A stretch of 64,000 nt of DNA from Calothrix sp. PCC 7716 (lineage in GTDB: Bacteria; Cyanobacteriota; Cyanobacteriia; Cyanobacteriales; Nostocaceae), in assembly GCF_019977735.1 (NCBI RefSeq), contig NZ_AP025018.1, positions 5,460,580 to 5,524,579 on the forward strand, in the 5' to 3' direction. The notes under the pieces were generated by a model, which was not told where the DNA came from, did not search any database, and worked only from the letters and a program-made list of their open reading frames with translations. This document shows, one piece after another, positions 1-64,000 of the stretch (the stretch's first letter is position 1; the number at the start of each line of letters is the position of its first letter). The position numbers and the translations under genes were made by a program.

Positions 1-435
1 GATGAACCGACCGTTCCAAGGATAACCAACGCTATCGGCAGCTGTGGCGCCTAACCCTGAAACAATTAAGTGTTGTGGGTTCATTGCCATTGCTTCTGCC
101 ATAATTACATCGCGCGGATTTGTGCCACCCATTACTGCACCTACAACTGGGTCACTGGCGCCATCTTCTTGCACTCTGATAGGTGCCTTATCTAGAAGGT
201 GAGCAATCATTGTTGCAAGCATTTCGATATGACCAATTTCTTCAGTACCAATATCTAGCAACATATCACGATATTTTGCTGGTCCCCGACAGTTAAACCC
301 TTGGAATAAATACTGCATCATTACAGTCATTTCTCCAAAAGTTCCACCAATGAGTTCCTGAACCTTCTTTGCGTAAACTGCATCTGGCTTTGTGGGCGGC
401 TTAAAATATTGAAGTTTCTTGGTGTGATAAAACAT
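1..435 (-). CDS. Manganese catalase (non-heme), C-terminus beyond window
   Basis: The 145 visible codons, read from ATG at 435, give the N-terminal half of a Mn-containing catalase, which disproportionates hydrogen peroxide in the cytoplasm using a di-manganese centre in a four-helix bundle. The start MFYHTKKLQ is typical of the family. Glu35 (TFGEMTVMMQYLFQG) and the pair Glu66/His69 in DIGTEEIGHIEML match known metal ligands of the Lactobacillus enzyme. The remaining ligands lie past the window edge. The gene is transcribed off the left end, so an intact C-terminus cannot be confirmed. Cyanobacteria often carry two such catalases (KatA/KatB type); which one this is cannot be decided here. 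Confidence 0.93.
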   Translation of the reverse strand, partial: MFYHTKKLQYFKPPTKPDAVYAKKVQELIGGTFGEMTVMMQYLFQGFNCRGPAKYRDMLLDIGTEEIGHIEMLATMIAHLLDKAPIRVQEDGASDPVVGAVMGGTNPRDVIMAEAMAMNPQHLIVSGLGATAADSVGYPWNGRFI

Positions 436-688
436 TTACGTACCCTTCCGAATTAAGTTACTAATATACTTGGGCGACATTGACAGTTAATCTTGACTGC
501 TTTCCAGCGGCGCCTTACCCTTCTAGTACACTTCTGATTAGCTTGTAGTGCTTCATTCTTCAGTGGGATATGGAAAACTCTTTTATTTAAGCCTTTATAC
601 GGAAGTTACTTTAATTCTTTAGCCTACAATGGCAAATGCCCTAGGGCTGTCACCTGCTTTAATCCCTCTTTTCACTTTCGTCTAATCA
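436..688. other. Intergenic leader upstream of the catalase
   Basis: No gene or tRNA is visible. The stretch should hold the catalase promoter on the minus strand. One GGCGCC lies near 507. No convincing -10/-35 pair or terminator was found. Confidence 0.4.
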
Positions 689-931
689 GTGTTATCACTC
701 ACTAGTAAATTAATATACCTAATTTACATTTATACTTGCTGTGTGCTGGCTGTTTTTGTCATGAAATATTATTCGCTACTGTGGTCAGTGACGTTCTGTT
801 TTTTGTTAGCAGTAACGTTTTACCCCCTATTCCCGTCTTTGCTGTCACGGTCGATGCATCAAAATCGAGTTAGGCAGTGGCAACCTATTTCTATTTTGGT
901 AAACTTGGCGCCGCTGTTTGTTATAAAATGA
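689..931 (+). CDS. Possible small membrane protein, doubtful
   Basis: This GTG-started frame encodes 80 residues with two hydrophobic stretches (about residues 8-27 and 29-50) and a basic tail. There is no ribosome-binding site upstream and no family I recognise. An in-frame ATG at 761 would give a shorter version with one helix. The region is AT-rich, where chance hydrophobic frames are common, so this may not be a gene. Confidence 0.2.
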   Translation: MLSLTSKLIYLIYIYTCCVLAVFVMKYYSLLWSVTFCFLLAVTFYPLFPSLLSRSMHQNRVRQWQPISILVNLAPLFVIK

Positions 932-949
932 ATTTTTGAATTGGTGCCT

Positions 950-1035
950 AAAATCCCCCCTAACCCCCCTTATTAAGGGGAGAAAAAGAGGTAAATTCTT
1001 AGCCCCCCTTATTAAGGGGGGTTGGGGGGATCAAA
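950..1035. repeat. Double C-tract/G-tract inverted repeat
   Basis: Two successive hairpins are built from CCCCCCTTATTAAGGGGGG and flanking C6/G6 runs. The same element recurs at 36521-36551. It lies at the 3' end of the glycosidase gene and supplies that gene's last codons and stop, so it may also act as its terminator. Confidence 0.7.
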
Positions 1036-2567
1036 TTATTTATTTTGATGATTGTACTTGGACTTTGTATTCCGTAACGAGTTACACCCGATATAGCAAC
1101 TGTATTAACTTGAGCATCAGTCAATGGATATGAGTTTTGATTGGCTGGTAAGATATTTGTCTTCCATTCATTTCCTGTTTTTGTTTGTAAAACCCATAAT
1201 GAGACTGGTTGTTTACCTGTTGCTTTCCAAGTTAATTGATTAATATTAGAAATTGTATTTTTTTGAATCTCTAATATTGGTTTCGAGGGGGGTGTATTAT
1301 TTAGCCAGGGTGATGCTGGTACTAATGCTGGATTTTGATAGCTTTTCTGCGATAATAAATCTGAGATTCCTGCGCGATTTTCCATTAAAGGTTTCATACT
1401 AAAGTGTATGTTACCACTGGCGCCCATAATTCCCTGCGTGCTTTTGAGTTGATAGAGTATTTCATTAGCATTCCAGTTTTGACGCTCTTGGTTCCCAACT
1501 CTACTAGTGTAAACTGATGCCCAAAGATGGCGATTTTTAACGTTTTGACTTTTCCACCAGTTTAATAATACCGGATAACTTTGCGCTGTTTGTTCAATTT
1601 TCCAATATAGTTGTGGTGAAAAGTAATCTAACCAACCCTCTGTCAACCATTTGCGAGAGTCAGCATATATTTCTTCGTAAGGGTTAAAACCCCCAGTATT
1701 AGATATCTGTTTCGGATATCCAGGTTTCCAAACACCAAAGGGACTAATGCCAACTTTCACCCAAGGTTTAGCACTTTTTACACCTTTGTATAAATTTTGA
1801 ACAAATGTATTAATGTTTTCTCGGCGCCAGTCGTTACGATTTAGTTTACCTCCAGAACGTTGATACTTCGCGTAGCTTACTTCATCAGGAAATTCTATAT
1901 TTTGCTTCTTCTCGTTTCGTTCTGGATAAGGGTAAAAATAATCATCTATAGTTATACCATCAATATCATAGCGTTTGACTACATCCATCATGACTTTTAA
2001 CGAGTAGTCTTGAACCTCTTTTTCTCCTGGGTCTAACCACATGTACTTACCGTATTGTCTAACTAAATCAGGACGTGTTTTAGTTATATGAGTTGGCGCC
2101 ACTTCTGATATAGATTTAATATGACTTGCGCGGTAAGGGTTAAACCAAACATGTAATTCTAAACCGCGTTTGCGTGCTTCTGTTATCGCAAATTCCAGAG
2201 GGTCATAATAAGGTAATGGGGGTTGTCCCATTTTACCCGTGAGAAACTCAGACCAAGGTTCATATGGTGATGCGTATAATGCGTCTGCCATAGGACGGAT
2301 TTGAAAAATTATGGCATTGAGCTTTAACTGTACGGCTTTATCTAAAATAGCTATCAGTTCTGCTTTTTGTTGGTCTGTTGTTAGTCCAGGCTTTGAGGGA
2401 AAGTCTATATTGGCAACGCTGGCAACCCATACACCTCTAAATTCTCTGGTGGTCGGTGGGGGTGTGTCTATTGTTTGAATGGGTTTGGCTTGTTTTTCCT
2501 GGGACTGGACTGGAGAGGCAATTGTTAAAAGAAGTAGTCCGCTTAGAATAGTAGCTTTGATGTTCAT
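999..2567 (-). CDS. GHL10 (DUF187) family exported glycoside-hydrolase-like protein
   Basis: The 522-residue product starts with a signal peptide (about residues 1-22, ending ASPVQSQ), then a GHL10 TIM-barrel domain from FRGVWVASVANIDF (about 43) to about 400, and a short C-terminal beta-rich domain. Motifs expected of the family are present: NAIIFQIRPMADALY, LELHVWFNPYRA and DIDGITIDDYFYPYPE with paired Asp residues. The family is thought to act on extracellular glycans; the substrate is unknown. The last dozen residues (NNLIPPTPLNKGG) are encoded by the C/G-rich intergenic repeat, so the original stop was probably replaced by repeat insertion. The gene stands alone on its strand. Confidence 0.85.
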   Translation of the reverse strand: MNIKATILSGLLLLTIASPVQSQEKQAKPIQTIDTPPPTTREFRGVWVASVANIDFPSKPGLTTDQQKAELIAILDKAVQLKLNAIIFQIRPMADALYASPYEPWSEFLTGKMGQPPLPYYDPLEFAITEARKRGLELHVWFNPYRASHIKSISEVAPTHITKTRPDLVRQYGKYMWLDPGEKEVQDYSLKVMMDVVKRYDIDGITIDDYFYPYPERNEKKQNIEFPDEVSYAKYQRSGGKLNRNDWRRENINTFVQNLYKGVKSAKPWVKVGISPFGVWKPGYPKQISNTGGFNPYEEIYADSRKWLTEGWLDYFSPQLYWKIEQTAQSYPVLLNWWKSQNVKNRHLWASVYTSRVGNQERQNWNANEILYQLKSTQGIMGASGNIHFSMKPLMENRAGISDLLSQKSYQNPALVPASPWLNNTPPSKPILEIQKNTISNINQLTWKATGKQPVSLWVLQTKTGNEWKTNILPANQNSYPLTDAQVNTVAISGVTRYGIQSPSTIIKINNLIPPTPLNKGG

Positions 2568-2609
2568 TAGATTTTAACTATAAAATACATGCACAATGAA
2601 ATACATCTA

Positions 2610-2631
2610 CAGGCAGGATGCCTGTTCCACA
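2610..2631. repeat. Copy of the GGCAGGATGCC palindrome family
   Basis: A short palindrome followed by GTTCCACAAT, in the divergent spacer between 2567 and 2677. Related copies lie near 8011-8085, 15123, 36353, 48212 and 50917. Confidence 0.55.
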
Positions 2632-2676
2632 ATTACACTTAATGATTTTGACAAATTTATTACACGATAAACATAG

Positions 2677-3828
2677 ATGGCACAATTAATATCTAATACT
2701 AAACGTCTTGTTTCTCTGGATGTTTTCCGAGGGATTGCTATAGCTTCGATGATATTGGTGAATAATCCGGGTAGTTGGAAATATATTTACCCTCCTCTTG
2801 AACATGCACCTTGGCATGGTTGTACCCCTACAGATTTAATTTTTCCCTTTTTTCTTTTTATTGTGGGTGTGGCGATGGCTTTCTCTTTTGCCAAGTATAC
2901 TGATGATAATCGACCAGATATTAAGGTTTATTGGCGTATTCTTAGGAGAGGTGCTTTATTGTTCGGTTTTGGTTTATTATTGGCGATTTTCTCTCCTTTT
3001 CTAGATTTAATCTTAAAAGGGGCGCCTATAGCTTTTAGTAAGCTGCGAATTATGGGAGTTTTACAGCGCATCAGTTTAGCTTACATGTTGGCCAGCTTCG
3101 CTGTTTTAAATTTGAAACGGCGCTTACTATGGGTATTAGCACTCATTCTATTAATAGGGTACTGGGCAGCAATGCTTCTTATTCCTGTTCCTGGTTACGG
3201 TGCTGGCAACCTGTCACCAGAAGGAAATTTAGCAGGTTATATAGACAGATTAATTTTAGGGACACATATATTTAAAGGAGGTGCCTTTGACCCAGAAGGG
3301 TTATTTAGTACATTACCTGCTATAGTCACAGTTTTGTTTGGATACTTTACAGGTGCATGGCTGCGTATTCAAGCAATAAAAAGCCGTACTAGTGTTAATC
3401 TTACTATTTTTGGTTTAATTTGCGTCATTATTGGACACTTCTGGGGATTAATCTTTCCAATTAACAAACAGCTATGGACTAGTTCTTATGTAGTGTATAC
3501 CGCAGGATGGGCATTACTATTACTAGCTTTGTGTTATGAACTAATCGAAGTTCGGAGATTAAAGCGTTTGGGTTTCCCTTTAGAAGTAATGGGGTTAAAC
3601 GCAATTTTTCTATTCGTCGGTTCGGGTTTGTTGGCTAGGATACTTAATAAAACGCAAATTGGTGTCGGAGAAAAGGCGCCATCAACATACACTTGGATTT
3701 ACGAAAACTTGTTTGCTTCTTGGGCAGGAGCAATGAACGGTTCTCTATTTTTCGCCATCACAACAGTTTTATTTTGGTGGGTAATTCTTTACGCTATGTA
3801 TAGGCGCCGTTGGTTCCTCAAAATTTAA
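2677..3828 (+). CDS. HGSNAT/NagX-type membrane acyltransferase (DUF5009/DUF1624-like)
   Basis: A 383-residue polytopic membrane protein with about 10 hydrophobic helices. The N-terminus RLVSLDVFRGIAIASMI followed by HAPWHGCTPTDLIFPFFLF (His43, His47) is the signature of the heparan-alpha-glucosaminide N-acetyltransferase/NagX family, in which a membrane histidine transfers acetyl groups to an amino-sugar. In cyanobacteria the substrate is unknown; cell-wall or exopolysaccharide amino-sugars are a reasonable guess. It starts at ATG 2677 and ends inside a repeat shared with the convergent neighbour. Confidence 0.8.
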   Translation: MAQLISNTKRLVSLDVFRGIAIASMILVNNPGSWKYIYPPLEHAPWHGCTPTDLIFPFFLFIVGVAMAFSFAKYTDDNRPDIKVYWRILRRGALLFGFGLLLAIFSPFLDLILKGAPIAFSKLRIMGVLQRISLAYMLASFAVLNLKRRLLWVLALILLIGYWAAMLLIPVPGYGAGNLSPEGNLAGYIDRLILGTHIFKGGAFDPEGLFSTLPAIVTVLFGYFTGAWLRIQAIKSRTSVNLTIFGLICVIIGHFWGLIFPINKQLWTSSYVVYTAGWALLLLALCYELIEVRRLKRLGFPLEVMGLNAIFLFVGSGLLARILNKTQIGVGEKAPSTYTWIYENLFASWAGAMNGSLFFAITTVLFWWVILYAMYRRRWFLKI

Positions 3829-3850
3829 GAAACCAGAAACCTGGTTTCTT
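3827..3850. terminator. GAAACC..GGTTTC hairpin between convergent genes
   Basis: AGAAACCAG / CCTGGTTTCT forms a stem between two convergent genes. It overlaps both 3' ends by one or two bases and probably serves as a bidirectional terminator. It belongs to a dispersed family (10146, 33970, 42977, 56549). Confidence 0.6.
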
Positions 3851-4349
3851 ATCGCGCTTGTAAAGACTGGCGTAACCAATAAGTAACCGTCCCAAGCACA
3901 ACCAGGAAAAACACAGGTACAAACCAAATTCCCCAACTAAAACTTTGTGAAGTTGCCAGACTATACATTAAACATTGCATAAAAGCAAATATCCATATCA
4001 ACTCAACTTTCAACCAATTCAACATCGATAGCGCAATAACGTACTGGCGCCGTGCGTTGTTTTCATTAATGGGGACAAGATAGTTAAACTTGTGCGGTGT
4101 ACGATTTAAATACGTTAAAAAGCCGTAAAAAAACAAAGCTAAACCAGGTAGCATCCACAATATCCGTTTACTACCCCAGGCATTCGGGCGCCCATCGAAT
4201 CCAAAATGCATAGGTATAGTATCAGGTAATACAAACCACCCGTAAATAGCAACTACAAATAATACTACGAGTCCTGCAATCGCTATCTCCGAAACCCGCC
4301 TATTCTGGGTTGATTCAGAAATAAATATAACCGGACGCTGGTAACTCAT
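3849..4349 (-). CDS. DUF1648 membrane protein
   Basis: This 166-residue protein has four predicted membrane helices. The segment DTIPMHFGFDGRPNAWGSK (about 43-61) is the hallmark of DUF1648, found in SdpI-like and other small membrane proteins. ATG at 4349 is preceded by a good GAGGA ribosome-binding site. Function is unknown. In Bacillus the related SdpI gives immunity to a toxin, but no such partner is seen here. Confidence 0.75.
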   Translation of the reverse strand: MSYQRPVIFISESTQNRRVSEIAIAGLVVLFVVAIYGWFVLPDTIPMHFGFDGRPNAWGSKRILWMLPGLALFFYGFLTYLNRTPHKFNYLVPINENNARRQYVIALSMLNWLKVELIWIFAFMQCLMYSLATSQSFSWGIWFVPVFFLVVLGTVTYWLRQSLQAR

Positions 4350-4492
4350 AATACTTCCTCCGTAAACGCAGTTAAATTATTTTTAACTTACCGCTCTTGC
4401 CGTAACACGCTATAAAATCTTTACTCACTTTTACAATCCCAATCTTGTATTATCTTGTAGTATATATATTATGGAAAGAACTATCTATATAT

Positions 4493-5038
4493 ATGGACAA
4501 CACCCGTTTAGTAAAAATCAGTAGATACCTAAGCAAACATTTACGACACCAACCCGAAAGAATAGGTATCGAACTTACTCCAGGAGGTTGGGTAGAAGTA
4601 GAAAAATTATTAGCAGCTTGTAAAAAACATCAATTCCCCATCAGCAGACAAGAACTAGAAGAAGTAGTAGCCAACAACGATAAACAGCGTTACTCATTCG
4701 ATAAGACAGGCGCCTTAATTCGTGCCAACCAAGGACACAGCGTTGAAATAGATCTACAATTAGAGCCGCAAGTCCCTCCAGATGTTTTGTATCACGGAAC
4801 CGGGCATAAATCTGTAGATGTAATTTTAGAACAGGGACTTTTAAAAATGTCCCGACATCATGTACATTTGTCAGCAGATATTGAAACCGCGACAAAGGTT
4901 GGAGCTAGACGTGGTAAACCAGTAGTACTTATAGTTGATGCTGCAAAAATGCATTTACACGGGATACGCTTTTACTGTTCAGATAACGGTGTATGGCTAG
5001 TTGATAGCGTGGCGCCTCAGTATTTGAGTCTAACTTAG
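4493..5038 (+). CDS. kptA: RNA 2'-phosphotransferase (Tpt1/KptA family)
   Basis: The product (181 residues from ATG 4493) belongs to the family that transfers an internal 2'-phosphate from RNA to NAD+, giving ADP-ribose-1'',2''-cyclic phosphate. Diagnostic segments occur in order: SRYLSKHLRHQP, GGWVEVEKLL, LIRANQGHS, VLYHGTGHKS, HVHLSADIETA and the C-terminal FYCSDNGVWLVDSV. I chose ATG 4493, not the upstream TTG at 4445, because family homology begins at MDNTRLVKISRYLS. Bacterial KptA has no tRNA-splicing substrate, so its physiological role is open. It is a single gene. Confidence 0.92.
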   Translation: MDNTRLVKISRYLSKHLRHQPERIGIELTPGGWVEVEKLLAACKKHQFPISRQELEEVVANNDKQRYSFDKTGALIRANQGHSVEIDLQLEPQVPPDVLYHGTGHKSVDVILEQGLLKMSRHHVHLSADIETATKVGARRGKPVVLIVDAAKMHLHGIRFYCSDNGVWLVDSVAPQYLSLT

Positions 5039-5337
5039 CTTTAACAGCCAACATCCCTAAGTATGTTTTCACAGTAACTATTGTATGTTAGTATCATTTA
5101 TATCTTAAAACTTTATTAACTACCGTCAGCCAAATCAGCCAGAATACCTAGAATATAGTGTAAATTGTTAAGATTCTAACAATTTTAACTCTGGAAACAA
5201 AAAATTATCGTTTACTTCTGGTTTTTTATCCTTAGTACAAGTTTTTGCATTGGATAATGAGTTAGCGATTCAGTAATTAAGCTGATAGCTGATGTAGCTG
5301 ATAGTAAGCGCAAGATAGCACAAATGGAGACAAGGGT

Positions 5338-5571
5338 ATGCACTTAGAACAAGTTAACGCTTTTTATGATTTTGTGGCTTCTCACCAAGATATATACGAA
5401 CAGTACTATAACGGTTGCTGCATTCGTGGTGTGTTTGGGGTTTGGAGCTGGGACAAGAAAAAAATAGTTGATTTTGCAGCAACGCTTGGGTTCAATTTTA
5501 CCGAAAGCGAGCTTGATTACGTTCTGTTTGACAGTGGTGCAGGTGCAGTACAGCATGTATCAGCTTACTAA
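5338..5571 (+). CDS. Nif11-family small protein / leader-peptide-like
   Basis: A 77-residue protein beginning MHLEQVNAFYDFVASHQDIY, the Nif11 domain pattern. Some family members are leader regions of RiPP precursors, others are stand-alone proteins near nitrogen-fixation genes. It has Trp/Cys residues (NGCCIRGVFGVWSWDKK) but no double-Gly cleavage site or long core peptide. No modification enzyme, LanM or transporter lies nearby, so a stand-alone Nif11 protein is more likely than a natural-product precursor. About 300 bases with no other gene precede it. Confidence 0.7.
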   Translation: MHLEQVNAFYDFVASHQDIYEQYYNGCCIRGVFGVWSWDKKKIVDFAATLGFNFTESELDYVLFDSGAGAVQHVSAY

Positions 5572-5659
5572 TTTTATCAAAACAGTAACGGCGCCTGCAT
5601 GAGTACAATAATACAAAAGTTTTAACAACGCGCGTTTTACAACCAAAAAATATATCATA

Positions 5660-5703
5660 GTAGAGACGTTACATGTAGAGACGTTACATGTAACGTCTCT
5701 ACA
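5660..5703. repeat. GTAGAGACGT palindrome family, one and a half units
   Basis: GTAGAGACGTTACAT is repeated twice, then closed by the complementary ATGTAACGTCTCTAC. Other copies: 23041-23068, 23871-23898, 55849-55891, and one inside a gene at 61228-61255. Confidence 0.8.
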
Positions 5704-5752
5704 TTGTCATTGTTGTCATGGGCGCCAGTACCCAATAAAAATCAAAATCGCA

Positions 5753-6394
5753 ATGGGTGACTTCTTTCTTATTAAATATGGTTCAGAAATACTACAGCGT
5801 GCAGGGGAGCATTTAGTTTTGGTAGGAATATCAATTACGATAGCAACGCTAATTGGTATTCCCTTGGGTATTTTGATTACTCGCAAAGCGATATTAAGGC
5901 AGCCGATTTTAGGTATAGCTAATATATTACAAACAATTCCCAGCTTGGCACTGTTCGGTTTATTAATTCCTGTACCAATAATAGGTGGTATTGGCGCCAC
6001 TCCTGCAATTGTAGCGTTAACACTGTACTCATTTTTACCGATAATTAGAAATACTTATACGGGAATAATCGGAGTTGATAGTGCTGTACGTGAAGCTGGA
6101 CGGGGTATGGGAATGAGCGACTGGGAATTGTTAGTGCAAGTAGAATTACCGTTAGCAATGAATGTTATTTTAGCTGGGGTAAGAGTAGCGACGGTTATCG
6201 CAATTGGAATTGCGACTATTGCAGCAGCAATTGGTGCAGGTGGGTTAGGGGTATTTATATTTAGAGGAATTGCAGTAGTTAATAACCAGTTAATTTTAGC
6301 AGGCGCCGTGCCCGCAGCCGTAATTGCTTTTGTAGCTGATTTTGCAATTGGTTTATTGGAGAAGCGCTTAAGTATTTATTCCAAAAGCTCTTAG
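5753..6394 (+). CDS. Osmoprotectant-type ABC transporter permease (OpuB/ProW family)
   Basis: A 213-residue inner-membrane permease with five or six helices. The BPD_transp_1 core is clear: LGIANILQTIPSLALFGLL early, and the EAA loop EAGRGMGMSDWELLVQVELP (about 125-144), which contacts the ATPase. It resembles the single-domain permeases of glycine-betaine/choline/carnitine importers. The matching binding lipoprotein follows at 6994, but a response regulator intervenes and no ATP-binding subunit is present in the window, so the ATPase must be encoded elsewhere. Confidence 0.85.
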   Translation: MGDFFLIKYGSEILQRAGEHLVLVGISITIATLIGIPLGILITRKAILRQPILGIANILQTIPSLALFGLLIPVPIIGGIGATPAIVALTLYSFLPIIRNTYTGIIGVDSAVREAGRGMGMSDWELLVQVELPLAMNVILAGVRVATVIAIGIATIAAAIGAGGLGVFIFRGIAVVNNQLILAGAVPAAVIAFVADFAIGLLEKRLSIYSKSS

Positions 6395-6541
6395 TACTTG
6401 ATAAAATTGGATGTTCTGGTATTCCTCAGAGAAATACTATCAAGTTTACGTCCCAAGGTGGTAACGTTGAAGTGAGGCTATAGAAAACGAACGGCACCAT
6501 ATTTAAGCTAAAACTTCCATTAATACCCGTTACAATCGCAA

Positions 6542-6961
6542 ATGAATCAAACTTCCCCCATTAGCTCGGACTTATCAAACTTACAGGGAACAAGAATCTT
6601 AGTCGTGGATGACGACCAAGATTCACAGGAATTACTTGCTTTTATGCTCGAACAAGAAGGTGCAGAAATACAAACCGCATCAAGTGCAGTAGAGGCATTG
6701 AATCTAATTACTCAGTGGCAACCAGATGTACTATTAAGTGATATCGGTATGCCACAAATGGATGGTTACACCCTCATCCGTCACATTAGAAATTTACCTA
6801 AAGAGCAGGGGGGTGAAGTTCCAGCTATTGCCTTAACAGCTTATGCAGCAGAAGCAGACAAAGAAACAGCGTTATCTTCAGGGTTTCAGCAGCACATTGC
6901 TAAACCTGTTGACCCTGTTGAGTGTATTGGCGCCATTATTCAACTACTTCAGAAACACTAA
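6542..6961 (+). CDS. CheY-like single-domain response regulator
   Basis: A 139-residue receiver domain with a short N-terminal extension and no output domain. The phosphorylation pocket is complete: Asp23/Asp24 in VVDDDQD, phospho-acceptor Asp67 in LLSDIGMPQMDGY, Thr99 and Lys121 in AKPVDP. Such receivers in cyanobacteria usually work with hybrid kinases. It lies 147 bases after the permease and 32 bases before the binding-protein gene, all on one strand, so it may be co-transcribed with a transporter operon, which is unusual. Confidence 0.88.
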   Translation: MNQTSPISSDLSNLQGTRILVVDDDQDSQELLAFMLEQEGAEIQTASSAVEALNLITQWQPDVLLSDIGMPQMDGYTLIRHIRNLPKEQGGEVPAIALTAYAAEADKETALSSGFQQHIAKPVDPVECIGAIIQLLQKH

Positions 6962-6993
6962 TTTATCATTTACGTTATGAGTTAGGATTATAA

Positions 6994-7905
6994 ATGAATT
7001 GGAAGTTTAAAAACTTTTTATTTATTTGTGCTTTTACTTGCTGTTTAATTTTAATTATAACTAGTTGTAATCCTAATCAAAACAGTAGTAGCGCCAAAGA
7101 TATAATAATTGCTTCAAAAGATTTTACCGAACAAGATATATTAGGTGAACTACTCGCGCAACAAATTGAAGCAAAGACAAATTTAAAGGTTGAACGTAAA
7201 CCTAGGTTAGGTGGTTCCTTTGTTTGCCACCAAGCGCTAACAGCAGGTAAAATTGATGGTTATATTGAATATACTGGTACAGCTTTTACCAGTATTTTAA
7301 AACAACCAGTAATTAATGACCCAAAAGAAGTTTATCGGCGCCTAAAACAAGGGTATGCAGAAAAATTTAATCTTGAAGTCATGAACTCTTTAGGATTTGA
7401 GAATACTTTTGCAATGATTATACGCGGAGAAGATGCCAGAAAATACAATATAAAAACACTTTCAGAAGCAGCAAAATATACACCACAATGGCGTGCTGGA
7501 TTTGGGTATGAATTTGCAGAACGTGAAGACGGTTTCCCAGGTTTATCAAAAACCTATAATTTACAGTTTCGAGAAAGACCAAGTGTAATGAGCTTAGATT
7601 TAATATACCGCGCGTTAACTCAGAAGCTAGTAGATTTTATCGCAGGAAACTCCACAGACGGACAAATAAACCGTTTAGGTCTAATAGTACTTCAAGACGA
7701 TAAAAAATACTTTCCACCTTACGAAGCAGTACCCATCATTCGTCAAGAAACATTAACAAAACATCCAGAATTAAAAACAGCTATATCACAACTAAGCGGA
7801 AAAATAACAGCATCAGAAATGCGACAATTAAATTATTTAGTCGAAGGTGAATTACGCGACATCAAAGACGTAGTAACCCAATTCCGCAAAACAAAAAACC
7901 TCTAA
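6994..7905 (+). CDS. Osmoprotectant ABC transporter substrate-binding lipoprotein (OpuAC/OsmX type)
   Basis: A 303-residue lipoprotein. The lipobox ends ITSC at Cys25, followed by DIIIASKDFTEQDILGELL, the conserved opening of glycine-betaine-type binding proteins. Further family features are CHQALTAGKIDGYIEYTGTA, YRALTQKLVDFIAGNSTDG and YFPPYEAVPIIR near the C-terminal half. It would present an osmoprotectant or quaternary amine to the permease at 5753. The exact ligand cannot be read from the sequence. Confidence 0.87.
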   Translation: MNWKFKNFLFICAFTCCLILIITSCNPNQNSSSAKDIIIASKDFTEQDILGELLAQQIEAKTNLKVERKPRLGGSFVCHQALTAGKIDGYIEYTGTAFTSILKQPVINDPKEVYRRLKQGYAEKFNLEVMNSLGFENTFAMIIRGEDARKYNIKTLSEAAKYTPQWRAGFGYEFAEREDGFPGLSKTYNLQFRERPSVMSLDLIYRALTQKLVDFIAGNSTDGQINRLGLIVLQDDKKYFPPYEAVPIIRQETLTKHPELKTAISQLSGKITASEMRQLNYLVEGELRDIKDVVTQFRKTKNL

Positions 7906-7986
7906 CCCGCCCCATCAACATCAAATTAAAAGTAAAATAAATTACGTATTGGCGCCATTAATATATACATTTGTCAATAAATAAGG

Positions 7987-8104
7987 CACTTCCAAAAATT
8001 TAATTCTCCATCTTGTGAGGTGGGCATCCTTGCCGGCCTCTTTGAATAAACGGGCAGGATGCCCATTCCACAATAAAATATTGGAGATTTTTTTATTTGG
8101 AAGT
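7987..8104. repeat. Nested inverted repeat of about 117 bp, MITE-like
   Basis: The outer arms are related (ACTTCCAAAAATTTAATTCTCCA-like on the left against its complement near 8082-8104). The inner arms are GTGGGCATCCTTGCC / GGGCAGGATGCCCATTCCAC. The inner part belongs to the dispersed GGGCATCC family, but the outer arms are seen only here. It sits between the 3' ends of convergent genes. Confidence 0.6.
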
Positions 8105-8119
8105 CCCTAATACGCCTAA

Positions 8120-8907: not shown

Positions 8908-8962
8908 AATACACAGCTTTGAATAAGTACTTTCCTAATTATAACGTAATACTATTATTTCG

Positions 8963-9568: not shown

Positions 9569-9694
9569 AGGTATTAATAACTTTAGTTATTACTCTACTA
9601 AATATTACAAAACTGCAACAGTAGTATCCAACACCAAAGGAATAAATTTGATAGCTTCTTTAAAGGTAAAATTTACCTATGGTTGGATTTATTG

Positions 9695-10141
9695 ATGGTG
9701 CCCTTTATGCTAACACGCTCACTCGCCGCTATTTTAGTAACTTGTGTATTTACAGTTATATCGTGGACTTTTAGTCCTGAAGCTATTGCACTAACACAAA
9801 TTCGCTTATTTGATGTTGATTACCATAAATGCCCTCCTGAAGTCGGAGATGGTTCTGTAACGAGTGGTGGTACTACTATGGCAGCAAACTGCTTTTTAGT
9901 TACAGGCAAAGCTGAAAACTCTACAAACAAGTATGTCTATGATGCGGATATTTTTGGGCGTATTTATGATGCAAACAATGATCCTGTGATGCAAAACAGA
10001 ACTCGTCTTGGTTCTATTCCAGAAGTTCCACCTGGTGTTAGCGATTTTGAGATGAGAATTACGGTAGCTGCTAACCAACCTGAACCCCTAAAACTCAAAC
10101 AGTTTAAAGCTGCTGGGTTCGGCGCCCAAGTACGAAAATGA
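9695..10141 (+). CDS. Exported hypothetical protein
   Basis: The protein (about 148 residues) has a signal peptide (LAAILVTCVFTVISWTFSP, cleaved near AIA-LTQ), then a small beta-rich domain with two Cys residues (DYHKCPPEVGDGS and MAANCFLV). Start choice is uncertain: ATG 9695 is used here, ATG 9707 and TTG 9683 are alternatives, and none has a clear ribosome-binding site. Function is unknown; it should be periplasmic or secreted. Confidence 0.6.
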   Translation: MVPFMLTRSLAAILVTCVFTVISWTFSPEAIALTQIRLFDVDYHKCPPEVGDGSVTSGGTTMAANCFLVTGKAENSTNKYVYDADIFGRIYDANNDPVMQNRTRLGSIPEVPPGVSDFEMRITVAANQPEPLKLKQFKAAGFGAQVRK

Positions 10142-10931: not shown

Positions 10932-11016
10932 AATCTCTTTACCGCCTTACAAAAAACTGCGACTGATCTCACGTTATCAAACTAGATAGTCACCATAGCC
11001 ATAGCTGCATAGTAGC

Positions 11017-20440: not shown

Positions 20441-23023
20441 ATGTCTGTTGAACAACTTAGTTGCGGTAGTACCGCCGATTTTACAATTGGTGTTGACAAT
20501 ATTAACCGCGACTTGCAGCCAGAAAATGCTGCTGTGGGTGCCCTTGCTAAACGGCAGGGAACAATTTCTACCTTTTTGGCGCCGCTAACTCAAGACACTT
20601 TTAAACAGGTTGTCACAGAGGTTGAGCAAAAGCTAGTGGTTGTCAATCAAACTCTATCGATGCTTGATTCGCAGGGGTTTGAGACAATCTTGAAAGAGAT
20701 GTTGCATTCTATCACGCTCAAAACAGGTGAGCTATTGGGGGCAGACCGAACGACAATATTTTTATTAGATGAAGAAAAGCAAGAGCTTTGGTCTATTGTT
20801 GCTGAAGGTGATGGCGCCAGTTCTTTAGAAATTAGGGTTCCTGCAAATAAAGGTATTGCTGGGGAAGTTGCCACATATAAAAGAGTTATTAATATCCCTT
20901 TTGATTTTTATGATGACCCGCGCTCGTATTTCGCACAGCAACAAGAGAAGCGCACGGGTTACCGTACCTACACAATGTTGGCATTGCCATTACTCAACGA
21001 GCAAGGACAACTAGTTGCTGTAGTACAGTTGCTAAATAAATTAAAACCGCAGCAGCGCGGAACGGCGCCTTTATCAGAGCGAATTGATATGCGCGGGTTT
21101 ACAGAGGCATCTGAACAACTATTTCAAGAGTTTGCCCTGTCCATCCGGTTAATTTTAGAATCATCGCGCTCGTTCTATGTGGCAACACAAAAACAACGCG
21201 CAGCAGCAGCGTTGATGAAAGCGATAAAATCACTGAGTCAAAGCAGTTTAGATTTAGAAGAAACCCTGAAACGGGTAATGGACGAAGCAAAAGAGTTAAT
21301 GAACGCTGACCGTAGCACATTATGGTTATTAGACCGTGAGAAGAGCGAGTTATGGACAAAAATTTCTCAAGCTAACGGGTCAACGAAAGAGTTGCGCGTT
21401 CCTTTTGGGAAGGGGTTTGTTGGACAAGTCGCTGCGAGTGGCAAGACTCTAAATATCATGTTCGATTTATATGAACATCCTGACTCTAGTACAGCCAAGC
21501 AACTCGACCAACAAAATGGTTATCGTACTTGTAGCTTGTTATGTATGCCAGTATTTAACGCTGACCAAGAGTTAATTGGGGTTACACAATTAGTCAATAA
21601 AAAGAAATCAGGAGATTTTGCGAACTATAACCCCGCAGACTGGCCTAAAGCTCCTGAATGTTTCCAAGCTAGCTTCGACCGTAACGACGAAGAATTTATG
21701 GAAGCATTTAACATCCAAGCTGGGGTAGCACTACAAAACGCGAAGTTGTTTGATACCGTTAAGCAGCAAGAGCAAATGCAGCGCGATATCTTACGCAGTC
21801 TTTCTAACGGTGTAATTTCCACCGATAAAGCCGGAAATATTATTGCGGCAAACGAAAGTGCTAAAAAGATACTTGGAATTGATACTCTTGACCGCTTAGA
21901 AGGAAGAGTTGTTACCGACGTTATTAGTATCAAAAAAGGAGATTTTAGCAAGTGGTGTCACGACGCTTTACACGCAGACGATAGAAAGCAAAGTCAGCAA
22001 TATTACCCAGACCAGACTTTAGTAATGGGTGATAACGAAGAACATAGTATTAACTTATCGATTAATTCTATTGCTGATGCTACCGACCAAGAGTCAGTTC
22101 GAGGCGCCTTGGTAGTTATGGAAGACATCAGCGATGAAAAGCGTCTCAAAAGTACGATGTACCGCTACATGACACAAGAACTAGCGGAAGAATTACTCAA
22201 ACTCGATGACGCGAAGCTAGGGGGAGATAGAAAAGATGTTTCGATACTATTCTCTGATATTCGCGGATATACGACTTTAACAGAGAACCTCGAAGCTGAA
22301 GAAGTCGTGAGTATGCTGAACGAATATTTCGAGTCAATGGTTGAAGCAGTATTCAAGCATAAAGGCACTCTTGATAAATATATCGGTGATGCCATAATGG
22401 CAGTATTTGGTTCACCTTTACCACTCGAACAACATGCCTGGATGGCAGTGCAAACCTCGTTAGAAATGCGTCAACGTTTACGCGAGTTCAACCGTCGGCG
22501 CCATGCCATCAATAAACCTCGTATTGACATTGGTATAGGTATTAACTCTGACACTGTTATCAGCGGTAATATTGGTTCCAGTAAACGCATGGAATTTACT
22601 GCAATTGGTGACGGTGTAAATTTAGGTTCACGTCTAGAAAGTGTTAGTAAACACTATAGTTGTGACATTATTATAAGTGATAATACTTATAAGCCATGTC
22701 AAGACCATGTTTGGGCACGCGAACTTGATTACATTCGTGTTAAAGGTAGAAACGAACCAGTCGCAATATACGAACTAGTTGGTTTACGTACTGACCCAGT
22801 TGATAGTAAAAGGCTCTTATTGATCGAACACTATCATAAAGGGCGCCATTATTACCTAAATCGTCAATTCACCTTCGCCAAGTCCGAATTTAATAAAGCC
22901 TTAGAACTAAACCCACACGACCATGCAGCAATGCTTCACGTGCGACGCTGTAACCACTGGTTACAAAGTCCACCTTCAGATGCTGACTGGGACGAAGGTG
23001 TTTGGACATTCAAAGACAAATAA
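20441..23023 (+). CDS. cyaB1: Adenylate cyclase with tandem GAF and PAS domains
   Basis: The 860-residue protein has the order GAF-A (about 75-230), GAF-B (about 255-430), PAS (about 440-560), class III cyclase (about 590-770) and a C-terminal TPR-like segment. This is the order and length of Anabaena CyaB1, where the GAF pair binds cAMP and activates the enzyme. The catalytic core shows VSILFSDIRGYTTLTENL with the metal Asp, GTLDKYIGDAIMAVFGSP with Lys and Asp marking ATP specificity, and GIGINSDTVISGNIGS. It produces cAMP as a second messenger. It is monocistronic. Confidence 0.9.
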   Translation: MSVEQLSCGSTADFTIGVDNINRDLQPENAAVGALAKRQGTISTFLAPLTQDTFKQVVTEVEQKLVVVNQTLSMLDSQGFETILKEMLHSITLKTGELLGADRTTIFLLDEEKQELWSIVAEGDGASSLEIRVPANKGIAGEVATYKRVINIPFDFYDDPRSYFAQQQEKRTGYRTYTMLALPLLNEQGQLVAVVQLLNKLKPQQRGTAPLSERIDMRGFTEASEQLFQEFALSIRLILESSRSFYVATQKQRAAAALMKAIKSLSQSSLDLEETLKRVMDEAKELMNADRSTLWLLDREKSELWTKISQANGSTKELRVPFGKGFVGQVAASGKTLNIMFDLYEHPDSSTAKQLDQQNGYRTCSLLCMPVFNADQELIGVTQLVNKKKSGDFANYNPADWPKAPECFQASFDRNDEEFMEAFNIQAGVALQNAKLFDTVKQQEQMQRDILRSLSNGVISTDKAGNIIAANESAKKILGIDTLDRLEGRVVTDVISIKKGDFSKWCHDALHADDRKQSQQYYPDQTLVMGDNEEHSINLSINSIADATDQESVRGALVVMEDISDEKRLKSTMYRYMTQELAEELLKLDDAKLGGDRKDVSILFSDIRGYTTLTENLEAEEVVSMLNEYFESMVEAVFKHKGTLDKYIGDAIMAVFGSPLPLEQHAWMAVQTSLEMRQRLREFNRRRHAINKPRIDIGIGINSDTVISGNIGSSKRMEFTAIGDGVNLGSRLESVSKHYSCDIIISDNTYKPCQDHVWARELDYIRVKGRNEPVAIYELVGLRTDPVDSKRLLLIEHYHKGRHYYLNRQFTFAKSEFNKALELNPHDHAAMLHVRRCNHWLQSPPSDADWDEGVWTFKDK

Positions 23024-28869: not shown

Positions 28870-30162
28870 TCATAATCCGTTGCTAATCTTTGCCAGTTTT
28901 AATCTTAAATGTTCCAATTCCAAATCGAGATGTATATACTTAGTAATATCAATAAAAGTGAGATTGGCGCCAATTAGCGTGCCACTTGTATCTAATATTG
29001 GTTGGATATAAATATCTAAATGAGTTGTACCAATTTCTGTTACCCATTCTATGTTTTGCTTCTTAAGCGCGCGTCGCTCACGATTTAGTTGTCTGATTAA
29101 AGCCAACGCTTTGATGATTCGTCCGAGTTCTAAATTTTGAATAAAGGTGCCTAAATCACTGTTTTGTATACTAAATAGTTTACAAGCTTGGTCGTTAGCT
29201 ACAATTAGATAACCTTTGGCATCAATTGCCAACTGGGGAAATGCACTCTTTTCAAAGGCTGTTTGCCATACGAGGGTTTGAGTGCTTAAAGGGTCAAGTA
29301 CTGTTTTTGTGCGAGTCTGGGGTCTAATTAAAAAGTGATCTTCCAAAGTCAGACTCTGACCTTTAGTATAAATACGATGCTTTAGACTAACAGGGGTGAA
29401 TATTTCTTTGTTCGTTAAGCTTTCTGCGTTACCTAGAAAAAGAAAACCTTTATTGGTTAAAGCAAAATGAAAGCGAACTAGTACAGATGCTTGGGTTTTG
29501 ACGTGGAGATAAATTAAGACGTTGCGACATACGAGCAGGTCTATTTTAGACATTGGCGCATTAATAGTCAGGTTATGGCGCCCAAAAACGATTGTAGAGC
29601 GTAGTTTGGGGTCTAAAACATAGCGTTGTTCATTTTTGTGAAAGTATTTAGACAATAGCTCGATTGGAATTCCTACTACCTCTTCTTCACTATAACTAGC
29701 TCGTCGAGCAAGTGTTAGCGCCGAATCATCTACATCCGTGGCGAAAATTTGCACTCGTTCTAAATATTGCTCGATACCTAGAGTTTCTACTAGTAATATC
29801 AGTAGTGTATAAGCTTCTTGTCCATAAGCACAACCAGCGCTCCAAACTCGGATTTTTTCTTGTGGTTGTTTATTTGCGATAATTTGAGGAATTATTGTAC
29901 TAGCTAAATAAGTCCAACAATCACGGTCACGAAAAAAGCCAGAGAAGTTAATAAATATGGTGTCGAGCAGGGTAGTGTACTCGTTGGGATGTCTTTGTAA
30001 ATATTGCAAGTAGTTCGTATAGCTATCAATTTTTAAATCCCGCATCCGACGTTGGAAGCGTCGCATTAAAGAATCACGTTTATAAAAAGTTAGATCGCAA
30101 CCGCAGTTTTGCTTGAGATAGCTTAACAAAGTTTCAAAATCTGGGTTATAATCTTCAGACAT
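28870..30162 (-). CDS. CheR-type methyltransferase with C-terminal PAS domain
   Basis: In this 430-residue protein the first 275 residues are CheR: an N-terminal helical domain with SLMRRFQRRMRDLKI, the SAM site RVWSAGCAYGQEAYTLL, QIFATDVDDSALTLAR and LLVCRNVLIYLHVKT. A PAS domain (about 300-425) follows, with FPQLAIDAKGYLIVANDQA. CheR normally methylates chemoreceptors; stand-alone CheR-PAS proteins in cyanobacteria probably methylate other signalling proteins. Just upstream on the same strand lies a decayed histidine kinase that may once have been its partner. Confidence 0.88.
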   Translation of the reverse strand: MSEDYNPDFETLLSYLKQNCGCDLTFYKRDSLMRRFQRRMRDLKIDSYTNYLQYLQRHPNEYTTLLDTIFINFSGFFRDRDCWTYLASTIIPQIIANKQPQEKIRVWSAGCAYGQEAYTLLILLVETLGIEQYLERVQIFATDVDDSALTLARRASYSEEEVVGIPIELLSKYFHKNEQRYVLDPKLRSTIVFGRHNLTINAPMSKIDLLVCRNVLIYLHVKTQASVLVRFHFALTNKGFLFLGNAESLTNKEIFTPVSLKHRIYTKGQSLTLEDHFLIRPQTRTKTVLDPLSTQTLVWQTAFEKSAFPQLAIDAKGYLIVANDQACKLFSIQNSDLGTFIQNLELGRIIKALALIRQLNRERRALKKQNIEWVTEIGTTHLDIYIQPILDTSGTLIGANLTFIDITKYIHLDLELEHLRLKLAKISNGL

Positions 30163-41590: not shown

Positions 41591-41595
41591 TGTAG

Positions 41596-45890: not shown

Positions 45891-45891
45891 A

Positions 45892-56118: not shown

Positions 56119-56424
<306 letters not shown>

Positions 56425-56615: not shown

Positions 56616-56621
56616 GTGCGT

Positions 56622-59312: not shown

Positions 59313-59381
59313 GGTGAGGGTGTATGGTGTGGATTTTTGTGAGCGTTTCGGTGTTTGGGAAGGAAAGCACTGAAGTGCTTA

Positions 59382-62300: not shown

Positions 62301-62966
62301 ATCATCAGATATAACCTCCCCCTCTTCATTCGTGACTTTACCTTCAAACTCCAACCTAGAACGACCATCAGCAGGAATGCGAGGTTCACCCACAGGAGTA
62401 AAAACAAGCTTAGTTTTTTGCTCCTTTACAATTACCTTAACACTACTAATTTGATTCTCAAGAGCTTGTGCAGTAATAATATTCTCACCTACTTGCAGAG
62501 GGATGTTATACCATATCTTCGTATAAACCTGATTAACCTCATCCTTCTGTACAAAACTAGAATCTGAACTAATAGACTTACCATTCACCATCACCTTCAC
62601 ATCCAAACTAGGATGATACTGCACAGCCAAATTAGTAGTCTTAGCTGTTGTTTCACCACCAACAGGAGTAATAATCTTAATTTCTTTCTTTTCTTCCTTT
62701 GCGACCTTTGCGTCCTTTGCGGTTCGTTTCTCTTCCTTCCCCAACTCCACCCGTTCCAAAACAGACAACTCATCAGGTTTAGACAAAGCTTTATCAGGAG
62801 AAAAAACAGGTATATCATCCTCCTCAACAGCAGCTACCACACTACTCTTTACATCATCATGCTGAACATGCTCATTACCAACAGTTTTTGCCGACACACT
62901 AACAGCACTCAAAACAGGGATGGTACTGCAAATAGTAATTAAACCGTTATTAAATTTTTTAGACAT
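59382..62966 (-). CDS. Large outer-membrane beta-barrel protein with inserted repeats
   Basis: The 1194-residue protein has a signal peptide (LITICSTIPVLSAVSVSA), an N-terminal Ig-like region (about 95-290; ITPVGGETTAKTTNLAVQYH, VGEPRIPADGRSRLEFEGKV) and a long C-terminal region (about 300-1180) of alternating beta strands rich in Tyr, Gly and Asn, as in outer-membrane barrels (for example FSLGYFSGNSYSIGLDYTD). The end GQTLTQ-type peptide is not clear. Residues about 78-95 (RTAKDAKVAKEEKKE) and 571-589 (RRDAINRVSTLSTQNSALST) are translated intergenic repeats. It starts one base after the upstream gene's stop, so the two are coupled. Confidence 0.8.
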   Translation of the reverse strand: MSKKFNNGLITICSTIPVLSAVSVSAKTVGNEHVQHDDVKSSVVAAVEEDDIPVFSPDKALSKPDELSVLERVELGKEEKRTAKDAKVAKEEKKEIKIITPVGGETTAKTTNLAVQYHPSLDVKVMVNGKSISSDSSFVQKDEVNQVYTKIWYNIPLQVGENIITAQALENQISSVKVIVKEQKTKLVFTPVGEPRIPADGRSRLEFEGKVTNEEGEVISDDVTVTLSATAGRFLGADQDNDAPGLQVLARDGKFSATLQAGYDAQNVKVRAAIDKTNVEAYSNIEFITNLRPSLATGVINLRIGAGGTNLWGSYRDFLNPNKTGRTDVDLDASVFATGKVGDWLFTGAYNSKRPLNQDCQGDVRLFGGVQDCEKAYPVYGDSSSVTPTTPSIDSVYAKLERSPNITGAESDYFMWGDYSTQEFARSSQLFTATTRQLHGFKGNYNIGNLQVTGLFANNIQGFQRDTISPNGTSGYYFLSRRLVIPGSENVFIESEELNRLGTVVKRKALSRGADYEIDYDRGTLLFRSRIFSTELNPFGATLANRIVVTYQNDKGSDSKLYAARAQYNFRRDAINRVSTLSTQNSALSTPFIAASYLWEDQGAQDFELYGADFFIPLGNGQIVGEYARSSHNSPTFGYVSGSAYRIEALGQITPSLQGQAFYRSVTENFANNATWSFAPGQTRYGAGLSGKITDTTSFNLGYDYENNFGIAPAQRTETFDLFNPQPLPKPGSKIDNSLTTLRAGLQQKLGASDISLEYVNRSRKDRVDNKFNANASQLVSKLNVPVTESLTFRAQNEANLGKSDALYPNRTTLGLDWALYPGVNVRLAHQFFDAGLLQGNSITSLDTTVEHKFSENTSLTGRYSIFTGIDGMNDQGAVGLNHRIRLAPGLKLNLGYERIQNNIFGNTATGIRFAQPYTTGQSAFSLGYFSGNSYSIGLDYTDNPNFQANARFEYRDGKEANNMVISAAAAGKITPALTAAARYQQAGGANQLLGGLGDTANLRVGLAYRDPNDDKFNGLLAYEYRQNPSTTPDTLLFGAGSGSTEHLFSAEAIYAPNWRWELYAKYALRNSTTYLANNFTGSSSLHLGQLRASYQLGYRTDVAIEGRWLGQPTQGFNEFGIALEGGYHLTPDLRIGLGYAFGSADDRDFTGYRSAGGPYLNISYKINELFGGFGRQKVAPPQQQESLTQKTPP
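61206..61255. repeat. STRR units plus GTAGAGACGCG palindrome inside a gene
   Basis: TGCTGAGTTCTGAGTGCTGAG (STRR-like) is followed by the perfect palindrome GTAGAGACGCGATT / AATCGCGTCTCTAC. It lies within the outer-membrane protein gene and adds about 17 codons in frame. Confidence 0.85.
62690..62728. repeat. CGCAAAGGACGCAAAGG repeat inside a gene
   Basis: On the minus strand CGCAAAGGACGCAAAGGTCG and CAAAGGAAGAAAAG resemble the dispersed ACCACAAAGGCACAAAG family (15196-15234). It encodes the Lys/Ala-rich TAKDAKVAKEEKK. Confidence 0.7.
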
Positions 62967-62967
62967 A

Positions 62968-63891
62968 CTATTGCCGTCCCTCTCTAAACGCAGGAGTTAC
63001 AGCAAAATTCATTCGTGCCATACTAGAAGGTGCCAACTTAACTAAACGAGACTGACTGTTTTTATCAATCCTGTATAAATTCGGCGCCTGAATATAACCA
63101 GGTAAACTAGTTAAATCTAAAGTGCCAGTGCGATTACCAGCAATCACATTCGCTACTGAAAAAATTCCATTAGCATCAGTAATAATACGGTTGCCATCAT
63201 CCATATAAATTACAGCATTAGGAATACCCGGTTCATTTTTTTGTTGTTCACCATCAAAGTTTTTGTCAACAAATACCCGTCCAATCAAAGTTCCACAATC
63301 AGAAATAAGACCAGAACGAATTTTTAATTGATGACTAGCAGTATTACTCCTTGCACTACCAGCAGTTGCAACCGCTAAATTTCTACCATTACCACGCATC
63401 CCATCTGGAGTAACCGTAGCAGCATAGATAATATTTAATGTACCAGTAGGCGCCAGACTTCCAGCATAAGTCACATTAAAACTACCCTGCGTAGATTTGG
63501 TAACAGATACAGGAACTTGAGACGTAGTGTTATTATTAGATAAAGATGCTTGCAAAGATTTAGATTCCAACACCAAACCCAACGGCAACTTATCAGTTAG
63601 CGTTATATTCGATGCATTGACATTGCCAACATTGCGAATCGTAATACGGTAAAGTACGGTATCACCAGGTTTGACGACAACTTTATCCGCAGCTTTAGCA
63701 ATTTGCAACACTGCTACCTCTGTACTGAATACCGCACGATTAGTAACTTGATTTGTCAGATTATCACCTCCAAAAAAAGCTCTATTTTCAATTTCGTTTG
63801 CAGCAACAGGTTGTAACAAAGTTGTAATCCCAGGAAGCATCATTAATGATACAAAAGAACTACGCCAGAATTGGTTAATAATAAATCTCAT
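62968..63891 (-). CDS. Exported DUF11/SdrD-B-like surface protein
   Basis: The 307-residue protein has a signal peptide (SFVSLMMLPGITTLLQPVAA). A DUF11 domain spans about 55-185 (AADKVVVKPGDTVLYRITIR, NASNITLTDKLPLGLVLES). An SdrD-B-like carboxypeptidase-regulatory domain follows at about 200-270 (TLIGRVFVDKNFDGEQQKNE, PGIPNAVIYMDDGNRII), then a short C-terminal tail. It is the first gene of the operon within this window; its promoter lies upstream of 63891, where no other gene is visible up to the end. Confidence 0.82.
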   Translation of the reverse strand: MRFIINQFWRSSFVSLMMLPGITTLLQPVAANEIENRAFFGGDNLTNQVTNRAVFSTEVAVLQIAKAADKVVVKPGDTVLYRITIRNVGNVNASNITLTDKLPLGLVLESKSLQASLSNNNTTSQVPVSVTKSTQGSFNVTYAGSLAPTGTLNIIYAATVTPDGMRGNGRNLAVATAGSARSNTASHQLKIRSGLISDCGTLIGRVFVDKNFDGEQQKNEPGIPNAVIYMDDGNRIITDANGIFSVANVIAGNRTGTLDLTSLPGYIQAPNLYRIDKNSQSRLVKLAPSSMARMNFAVTPAFREGRQ

Positions 63892-64000
63892 ATAAATAGA
63901 GTAGTTGCGAGAAAATAAGCGATGTTACTTTTTTTGATACTCACATCACTTATTGACTTTTATTCTTTTTTGAAAGGTAAATGCTGTTAAAATGCGGCGG

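What the first reader, a model, noticed from the sequence alone, without database searches (positions are those of the whole stretch)
1..64000. GATC is almost absent
Scanning both lines and block boundaries I find only seven GATC tetramers (near 1027, 4750, 9978, 10965, 22823, 29337 and 30092), although around 200 are expected from base frequencies. This goes beyond absence of HIP1, which contains GATC. It suggests long-term counter-selection by a GATC-cutting or modified-GATC-cutting enzyme, possibly the same event that displaced HIP1.
Basis: seen in the sequence. Interest (0 to 1): 0.85.

Follow-up and report, generated by a model that had tools for sequence, protein, structure and literature searches.

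The report
GATC purged by resident DpnII-type restriction
This cyanobacterium has almost erased the four-letter DNA word GATC from its genome, most likely because it has long carried an enzyme that cuts at GATC; the same thing was already reported for a close relative.

Summary
The count is right: 7 GATC in 64 kb against 142-154 expected from di/trinucleotides; in coding DNA 5 against 125 ± 8 after synonymous shuffling. It is genome-wide and holds in every flank context. The window lies in a 12.4 Mb Calothrix/Dulcicalothrix-like cyanobacterium. That genome carries, 1.7 Mb from the window, a Dam/DpnM-like methyltransferase followed by a full-length R.DpnII. All 7 genomes held for the genus carry the pair; dN/dS is 0.06-0.18 in the 13 of 21 genus pairs computed. 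Long residence of this restriction-modification system is the best explanation. Elhai (2015) already reported 16% of expected GATC, a putative GATC nuclease and the substitute palindrome GGCGCC in Calothrix PCC 7103, and proposed this cause: a new member of a known kind. The idea that the same event displaced HIP1 is not supported as sufficient: three other family genomes with such a system keep 6,202-6,966 HIP1. New here: in 17 of 19 DpnII-bearing genomes no close orphan DmtA was found. Some genomes without a DpnII match are even more GATC-poor, unexplained.

The parts
1..64000 (.). Whole-window GATC depletion (7 sites; none between 30097 and the window's end)
1029..1032 (.). GATC site 1, inside the GHL10-type glycosyl-hydrolase-like ORF 999-2567
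   Evidence: position; ORF
4751..4754 (.). GATC site 2, inside the KptA/Tpt1 RNA 2'-phosphotransferase ORF 4445-5038
9980..9983 (.). GATC site 3, inside ORF 9683-10141 (no Pfam match)
10965..10968 (.). GATC site 4, between ORFs 10596-10931 and 11017-11667
22822..22825 (.). GATC site 5, inside the GAF/cyclase-like ORF 20441-23023 (name from reading the translation, not searched)
29337..29340 (.). GATC site 6, inside the CheR-like ORF 28870-30162 (name from reading the translation, not searched)
30093..30096 (.). GATC site 7, same ORF as site 6. The proposed cause lies outside the window: G000:C1:3770579-3771619 (methyltransferase) and 3771671-3772597 (R.DpnII), + strand; the window is G000:C1:5460580-5524579

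Best explanation
Shown: GATC as a plain 4-bp site is depleted about tenfold across this genome, in coding and non-coding DNA and in all flank contexts, mostly through synonymous routes. The genome encodes an intact DpnM/Dam-like adenine methyltransferase followed by a full-length DpnII-family nuclease. The pair is present in all 7 genomes held for the genus, shows purifying selection, and no close orphan DmtA was found there. Inferred: it is an active GATC type II restriction-modification system, acquired before the genus radiated. Occasional under-methylation lets R.DpnII cut the host's own GATC, so each lost site is slightly favoured; over a long residence this purges GATC. Because the system's methyltransferase is the only recognisable close relative of a GATC methyltransferase left, and GATC methylation appears to be required for viability in Anabaena PCC 7120 under some laboratory conditions (Elhai 2015, section 3.3), the system is hard to lose, which would lengthen its residence. 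HIP1 loss is a second, partly separate event that goes, in this genus, with absence of the CGATCG methyltransferase DmtC and with GGCGCC as substitute.
For: Count and null models. Codon evidence: Asp before C uses GAC 106 / GAT 3, elsewhere GAC 143 / GAT 517; Ile after G uses ATC in 2 of 100, otherwise 152 of 972; Ser after GA uses TCN in 0 of 12, otherwise 615 of 1,001. All flank classes equally low in G000: GATC/CTAG 0.07, 0.08, 0.11. M and R genes: PF04556 320 bits over 2-276/278; M matches DpnII M (2dpm) E 5.5e-51. R present in 7 of 7 genus genomes and full-length in 19 of 217 of the family. Within the genus R and M have dN/dS 0.06-0.18 (13 of 21 pairs computed), and DNA downstream of the pair in G000 is matched close behind it in the six other genomes. 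DpnII+ genomes are lower in GATC than DpnII-: median ratio 0.257 (n=19) against 0.502 (n=198), p=1.7e-5; without this genus 0.383 (n=12), p=0.012; genus medians p=0.009; within g106 0.08 and 0.12 against 0.40 (n=1). 17 of 19 DpnII+ genomes show no close DmtA. A 7-kb GC-rich segment in G000 still holds abundant GATC, as expected of recent DNA not yet purged. Orthodox type II systems with long residence are the class that causes avoidance (Rusinov 2015, abstract and passages).
Against: The link between DpnII and depletion is loose. The three lowest ratios in the family belong to genomes without a DpnII match (G347 0.016, G338 0.058, G345 0.068), and in three of the four genera that hold both kinds (g131, g7, g36) DpnII+ genomes are less depleted. 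G001, with the same system, is much less depleted than its congeners (0.38 against 0.13-0.19). Elhai found no obvious general relation between GATC frequency and a GATC nuclease in 97 genomes. Nuclease activity, specificity and methylation status were not measured.
Confidence: 0.77

Rival explanations
1. GATC depletion is only the shadow of HIP1 loss: much of the GATC in relatives sits in GCGATCGC, so losing HIP1 removes GATC.
For: HIP1 is 66 in 12.4 Mb in G000 and 31-163 across the genus, against at least 1,117 in all but four (G336, G347, G345, G338) of the other 210 family genomes (ranking).
Against: My arithmetic: HIP1 loss explains about 44% of the difference. AT-flanked GATC, which cannot be HIP1, is 0.128 of control in G000.
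Confidence: 0.05
2. The depletion is a trace of an older or different GATC-cutting system of unknown family, shared by several Nostocaceae lineages; the present DpnII system is a later addition.
For: G347, G338 and G345 are deeply depleted without a PF04556 or PF02976 match and keep an intact-looking DmtA and a DmtC. Traces of lost systems are documented elsewhere (Rusinov 2015 abstract).
Against: In this genus the system is in 7 of 7 genomes, intact and under purifying selection, so a second agent is not needed here. The DpnII-negative relative G202 is only moderately depleted (0.40).
Confidence: 0.12
3. Mutation pressure: cytosine methylation of GATC followed by deamination turns GATC into GATT/AATC.
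For: m5C methyltransferases abound (16 PF00145 matches in G000).
Against: GATT and AATC are not in excess (0.98 each). At six glmS columns where at least 6 of 25 outgroup sequences have GATC, the genus shows several different replacements, and one of its 6 sequences keeps GATC at one column (small sample).
Confidence: 0.03
4. A MutH-type or methyl-directed (DpnI-type) enzyme does the counter-selection.
For: GATC is avoided in 38 of 42 genomes with methyl-directed GATC enzymes (Rusinov 2015, passage). One family genome, G018, has a MutH/Sau3AI-like match over the cut-off and a low ratio, 0.17.
Against: PF02976: no match in any of the 7 genus genomes, with the control ringing in E. coli. PF06044: 0 of 31, but the control was silent. 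A DpnI enzyme should be lethal beside a resident GATC methyltransferase.
Confidence: 0.03

Closest known systems
Calothrix PCC 7103 (Elhai 2015, Life 5:921, PMC4390886)
   Same: GATC at 16% of expectation, a putative GATC nuclease gene, HIP1 nearly lost, GGCGCC highly over-represented, standard CGATCG methyltransferase lost; the same cause proposed (abstract, sections 2.5.1, 3.3, 3.5 and passages seen).
   Different: Here a genome of what appears to be the same clade; whether PCC 7103 is itself one of the seven unnamed genus genomes was not settled. Added: DpnII identified by profile, the pair found in all 7 genomes with dN/dS, and a 217-genome comparison.
DpnII/MboI-type GATC restriction-modification system (PF04556 nuclease + D12 methyltransferase)
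   Same: Gene order M then R, full-length R.DpnII profile match, M closest in the PDB to DpnII M (2dpm). Lactococcus plasmid relatives are 42% identical in R.
   Different: One D12 methyltransferase beside R, three small HTH ORFs upstream, no second methyltransferase recognised in the 8 kb read around it; chromosomal and in every genus genome held.
Orphan cyanobacterial DmtA / DmtC methyltransferases tied to HIP1
   Same: The M of this genus is a D12 methyltransferase 46-48% identical to the DmtA of G202.
   Different: No close DmtA and no DmtC match in 7 of 7 genomes of this genus.

Membership tests
DpnII-type GATC restriction-modification system | Nuclease of the DpnII family (PF04556), full length, no stops | tested here: met
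   320 bits, 2-276/278, open frame
DpnII-type GATC restriction-modification system | Adjacent D12 m6A methyltransferase with DPPY and PFxGGG motifs | tested here: met
   Directly upstream, 2dpm E 5.5e-51, motifs present; motifs as such are recalled
DpnII-type GATC restriction-modification system | Both genes maintained by selection | tested here: met
   dN/dS 0.06-0.18 in 13 of 21 genus pairs computed
DpnII-type GATC restriction-modification system | Cuts unmethylated GATC and methylates it | not testable with these tools
   No biochemistry or methylome
Restriction-site avoidance by a resident type II system | Site depleted beyond Markov and codon expectation, palindrome-specific, context-free | tested here: met
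Restriction-site avoidance by a resident type II system | Depletion tracks presence of the system among relatives | tested here: inconclusive
   Overall yes (p=1.7e-5), but of four genera with both kinds one agrees and three are reversed
DpnI-type (methyl-directed) system | PF06044 nuclease present | tested here: inconclusive
   0 of 31, but the control rang nowhere
HIP1-bearing Nostocaceae | High-frequency GCGATCGC with DmtA and DmtC | tested here: not met
   66 HIP1 in 12.4 Mb; no close DmtA, no DmtC match

The most novel reading that the evidence does not exclude
A mobile DpnII restriction-modification system can take over the GATC-methylation role of the cyanobacterial orphan DmtA, becoming locked in because its methylase is then the only one left, and so stay long enough to purge GATC. 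HIP1 sites resist that purge (G203: AT-flanked GATC 3 against 59 CTAG in 60 kb; HIP1 6,966 genome-wide) and collapse in this genus only because the CGATCG methyltransferase was lost as well. HIP1 would then be actively maintained, not passively inherited.
Probability: 0.35. Interest if true: 0.65.

Novelty: new member of a known kind. Interest (0 to 1): 0.42.

Why it matters
What maintains HIP1 in cyanobacteria is a long-open question. Genomes that purge AT-flanked GATC yet keep thousands of HIP1, beside a genus that lost both, give a natural contrast for testing whether DmtC methylation or mismatch repair maintains HIP1. It also suggests a restriction system replacing an orphan methyltransferase, which could explain unusually long residence and deep site avoidance.

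Tried and rejected
Deamination, codon/protein composition and pure HIP1 loss were tested and rejected. MutH/Sau3AI as general cause rejected: 1 of 217 genomes over the cut-off (G018), one more weak match. HaeIII-type nuclease for the second depleted site GGCC: 0 of 15 genomes, control rang in one. Orphan DmtA neighbourhoods in G347 and G338 read for an adjacent nuclease: none recognised by eye. DmtC proteins compared with 28 stretches of G000 and one of G004: six cytosine-methylase loci hit (five of G000, which has 16 PF00145 matches, and one of G004), at most 41% identity, so no DmtC remnant among those examined. WWGATCWW is an imperfect proxy: in G213, G308 and G271 it is low (0.14-0.21) while total GATC in one 20-kb stretch each is 0.66-0.80 of expectation. 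A solved-structure search with R found nothing at E 0.001; NCBIfam had no model for R.

Paper searches: HIP1 + Calothrix + GATC gave only Elhai 2015; HIP1 + GATC + cyanobacteria + avoidance gave none; Dulcicalothrix + methyl gave three listings, not opened, titles on other subjects; some searches were seen as listings, from which only Elhai 2015 (sections and passages) and Rusinov 2015 (abstract and passages) were opened.

DmtC counter-examples: 8 other genomes without a match (G206, G207, G208, G239, G242, G253, G254, G334) keep 2,878-7,016 HIP1, so DmtC loss alone is not sufficient either, unless another CGATCG methyltransferase stands in. The DmtC query was picked here by its spread among HIP1-rich genomes, not by assay; one search used E 1e-60 and scored at most 8 first-look candidates per genome. 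The specificities of DmtA and DmtC are taken from Elhai 2015.

Full report
Observation. Holding the proteins and codon usage of 32 ORFs fixed, 5 GATC are seen against 125.3 ± 8.3 (lowest of 300 shuffles 99), with all three reading frames low (3, 0, 2 against 87.6, 17.7, 20.0); outside those ORFs 2 against 38.6. Asp codons before a C are GAC 106 and GAT 3, elsewhere GAC 143 and GAT 517, so the avoidance acts on the DNA word through synonymous choice. The products of C deamination, GATT and AATC, are not in excess (0.98).

Where it is. The window is G000:C1:5460580-5524579 of a 12.37 Mb genome in 10 contigs. Its glmS protein is 99% identical to that of Dulcicalothrix desertica PCC 7102 and 93-98% to four Calothrix. 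Of 20 further 20-kb stretches, 19 have GATC at 0.00-0.25 of expectation and one at 0.94. Pooled without that one (window included, 444 kb), GATC is 107 of 1,080 and GGCC 90 of 530, while GGCGCC is 705 against 36. The exception is a segment of about 7 kb of GC-rich DNA with some 70 GATC inside otherwise GATC-poor DNA, which looks recently acquired; an assembly join cannot be excluded.

The enzyme. At G000:C1:3770579-3772597 lies a 346-351 aa D12 methyltransferase (PDB 2dpm, E 5.5e-51) followed by a 308 aa protein matching PF04556 DpnII over nearly its whole length with 320 bits; three small HTH ORFs lie upstream. Full-length DpnII occurs in 7 of 7 genomes held for the genus and 19 of 217 of the family, and in 5 of 156 of an order-wide draw that includes G000 and one more family genome with it. 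Within the genus R and M show dN/dS of 0.06-0.18 (13 of 21 pairs computed), and the gene downstream in G000 (a transporter, by eye) is matched close behind the pair in the six other genomes. This supports one ancestral acquisition and continued use. R relatives also occur on 19 plasmid records of other organisms, all below 60% identity, at most 42% among the 15 listed, and on one phage record.

Comparative test. Whole-genome WWGATCWW against WWCTAGWW in 217 genomes: the genus gives 0.13-0.19 in six and 0.38 in one; DpnII-positive median 0.257 (n=19), negative 0.502 (n=198), p=1.7e-5; excluding this genus p=0.012; by genus median p=0.009. These p-values ignore most of the phylogeny. Of four genera with both kinds, g106 agrees (0.08 and 0.12 against 0.40, n=1); g131, g7 and g36 are reversed. 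The three lowest genomes (G347 0.016, G338 0.058, G345 0.068) have no DpnII match, carry an intact-looking DmtA and a DmtC and no MutH match; stretches of 59, 40 and 19 kb confirm GATC at 0.08, 0.07 and 0.14 of expectation. Their cause is unknown.

Replacement of the orphan methyltransferase. With the DmtA of G202 as query, 17 of 19 DpnII-positive genomes show only the DpnII-side methyltransferase (46-51% identity), and two (G291, a partial match, and G304) also a DmtA-like one (60%); of 14 DpnII-negative genomes tested, 10 have DmtA at 64-100% (G202 itself included), three (G342, G295, G206) only a DpnM-like gene (45-46%), and one (G334) a 48% match. G342 and G295 keep fragments of R. So the system often stands in for DmtA, and R can decay leaving M. 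The other 184 family genomes were not put to this query.

HIP1. HIP1 counts are 66 in G000 and 31-163 in the genus, against 535-8,803 in all but one other family genome (G336: 30). In 60 kb of G203, AT-flanked GATC is 3 against 59 CTAG (0.05) while GC-flanked GATC is 84 against 18 (4.67); in G000 the three flank classes are 0.07, 0.08 and 0.11. GATC restriction alone therefore does not displace HIP1. DmtC has no match in 7 of 7 of this genus, and in 10 of 19 DpnII-positive against 5 of 198 negative genomes (E 1e-60, at most 8 candidates scored per genome; Fisher p 4e-9, not corrected for descent). But G242, G253 and G254 lack a DmtC match, have DpnII, and keep 2,878-5,328 HIP1, and five DpnII-negative genomes without DmtC keep 4,341-7,016, so DmtC loss is not sufficient by itself.

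What is known. Elhai 2015 (abstract, sections 2.5.1, 3.3, 3.5 and passages read) reports for Calothrix PCC 7103 GATC at 16% of expectation, a putative GATC nuclease, GGCGCC as alternate palindrome and loss of the standard CGATCG methyltransferase, and proposes infection by GATC- and CGATCG-specific nucleases as the cause. Rusinov 2015 (abstract and passages) shows that orthodox type II systems cause such avoidance, more often the longer they have resided. The finding is therefore a new member of a known kind. The additions are presence throughout the genus genomes held, purifying selection, codon-level evidence, apparent replacement of DmtA, and separation from HIP1 loss.

Noticed in passing
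window 40328-42168 (+): A Septu-type defence pair: PtuA-like ATPase (PADLOC E 2.9e-178) followed by PtuB-like protein (4.1e-76).
   Followed up: partly
window 16505-18091 (+): A TPR protein whose N-terminal part reads like a PD-(D/E)XK nuclease (motif recalled and judged by eye); Pfam sees only TPR families and PADLOC nothing.
   Followed up: partly
window and G000 stretches (444 kb): GGCC is the second most avoided tetramer (90 of 530) and at least seven 6-bp palindromes with more than 15 expected (CCATGG, CCGCGG, GCATGC, GTCGAC, GTGCAC, TGCGCA, TTCGAA) have zero copies; no HaeIII-family nuclease found in 15 genomes.
   Followed up: partly
G347, and G338/G345 of genus g131: GATC is even rarer than in the window's genome although no DpnII or MutH-type nuclease was found and DmtA and DmtC are present; HIP1 is low too (535-990). 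Cause unknown.
   Followed up: partly
L101:13600-20000 and L220:1-1000 (G000:C1 about 4913600-4921000): A GC-rich, GATC-rich segment of about 7 kb (TetR-like regulator, CPBP-protease-like proteins by eye), probably recently acquired.
   Followed up: partly
L229-L231 (G253): HIP1 is kept (61 in 60 kb) while CGATCG outside HIP1 is almost gone (1), unlike G203 (16 in 60 kb), G015 (31 in 80 kb) and G202 (36 in 102 kb); no DmtC match there.
   Followed up: no
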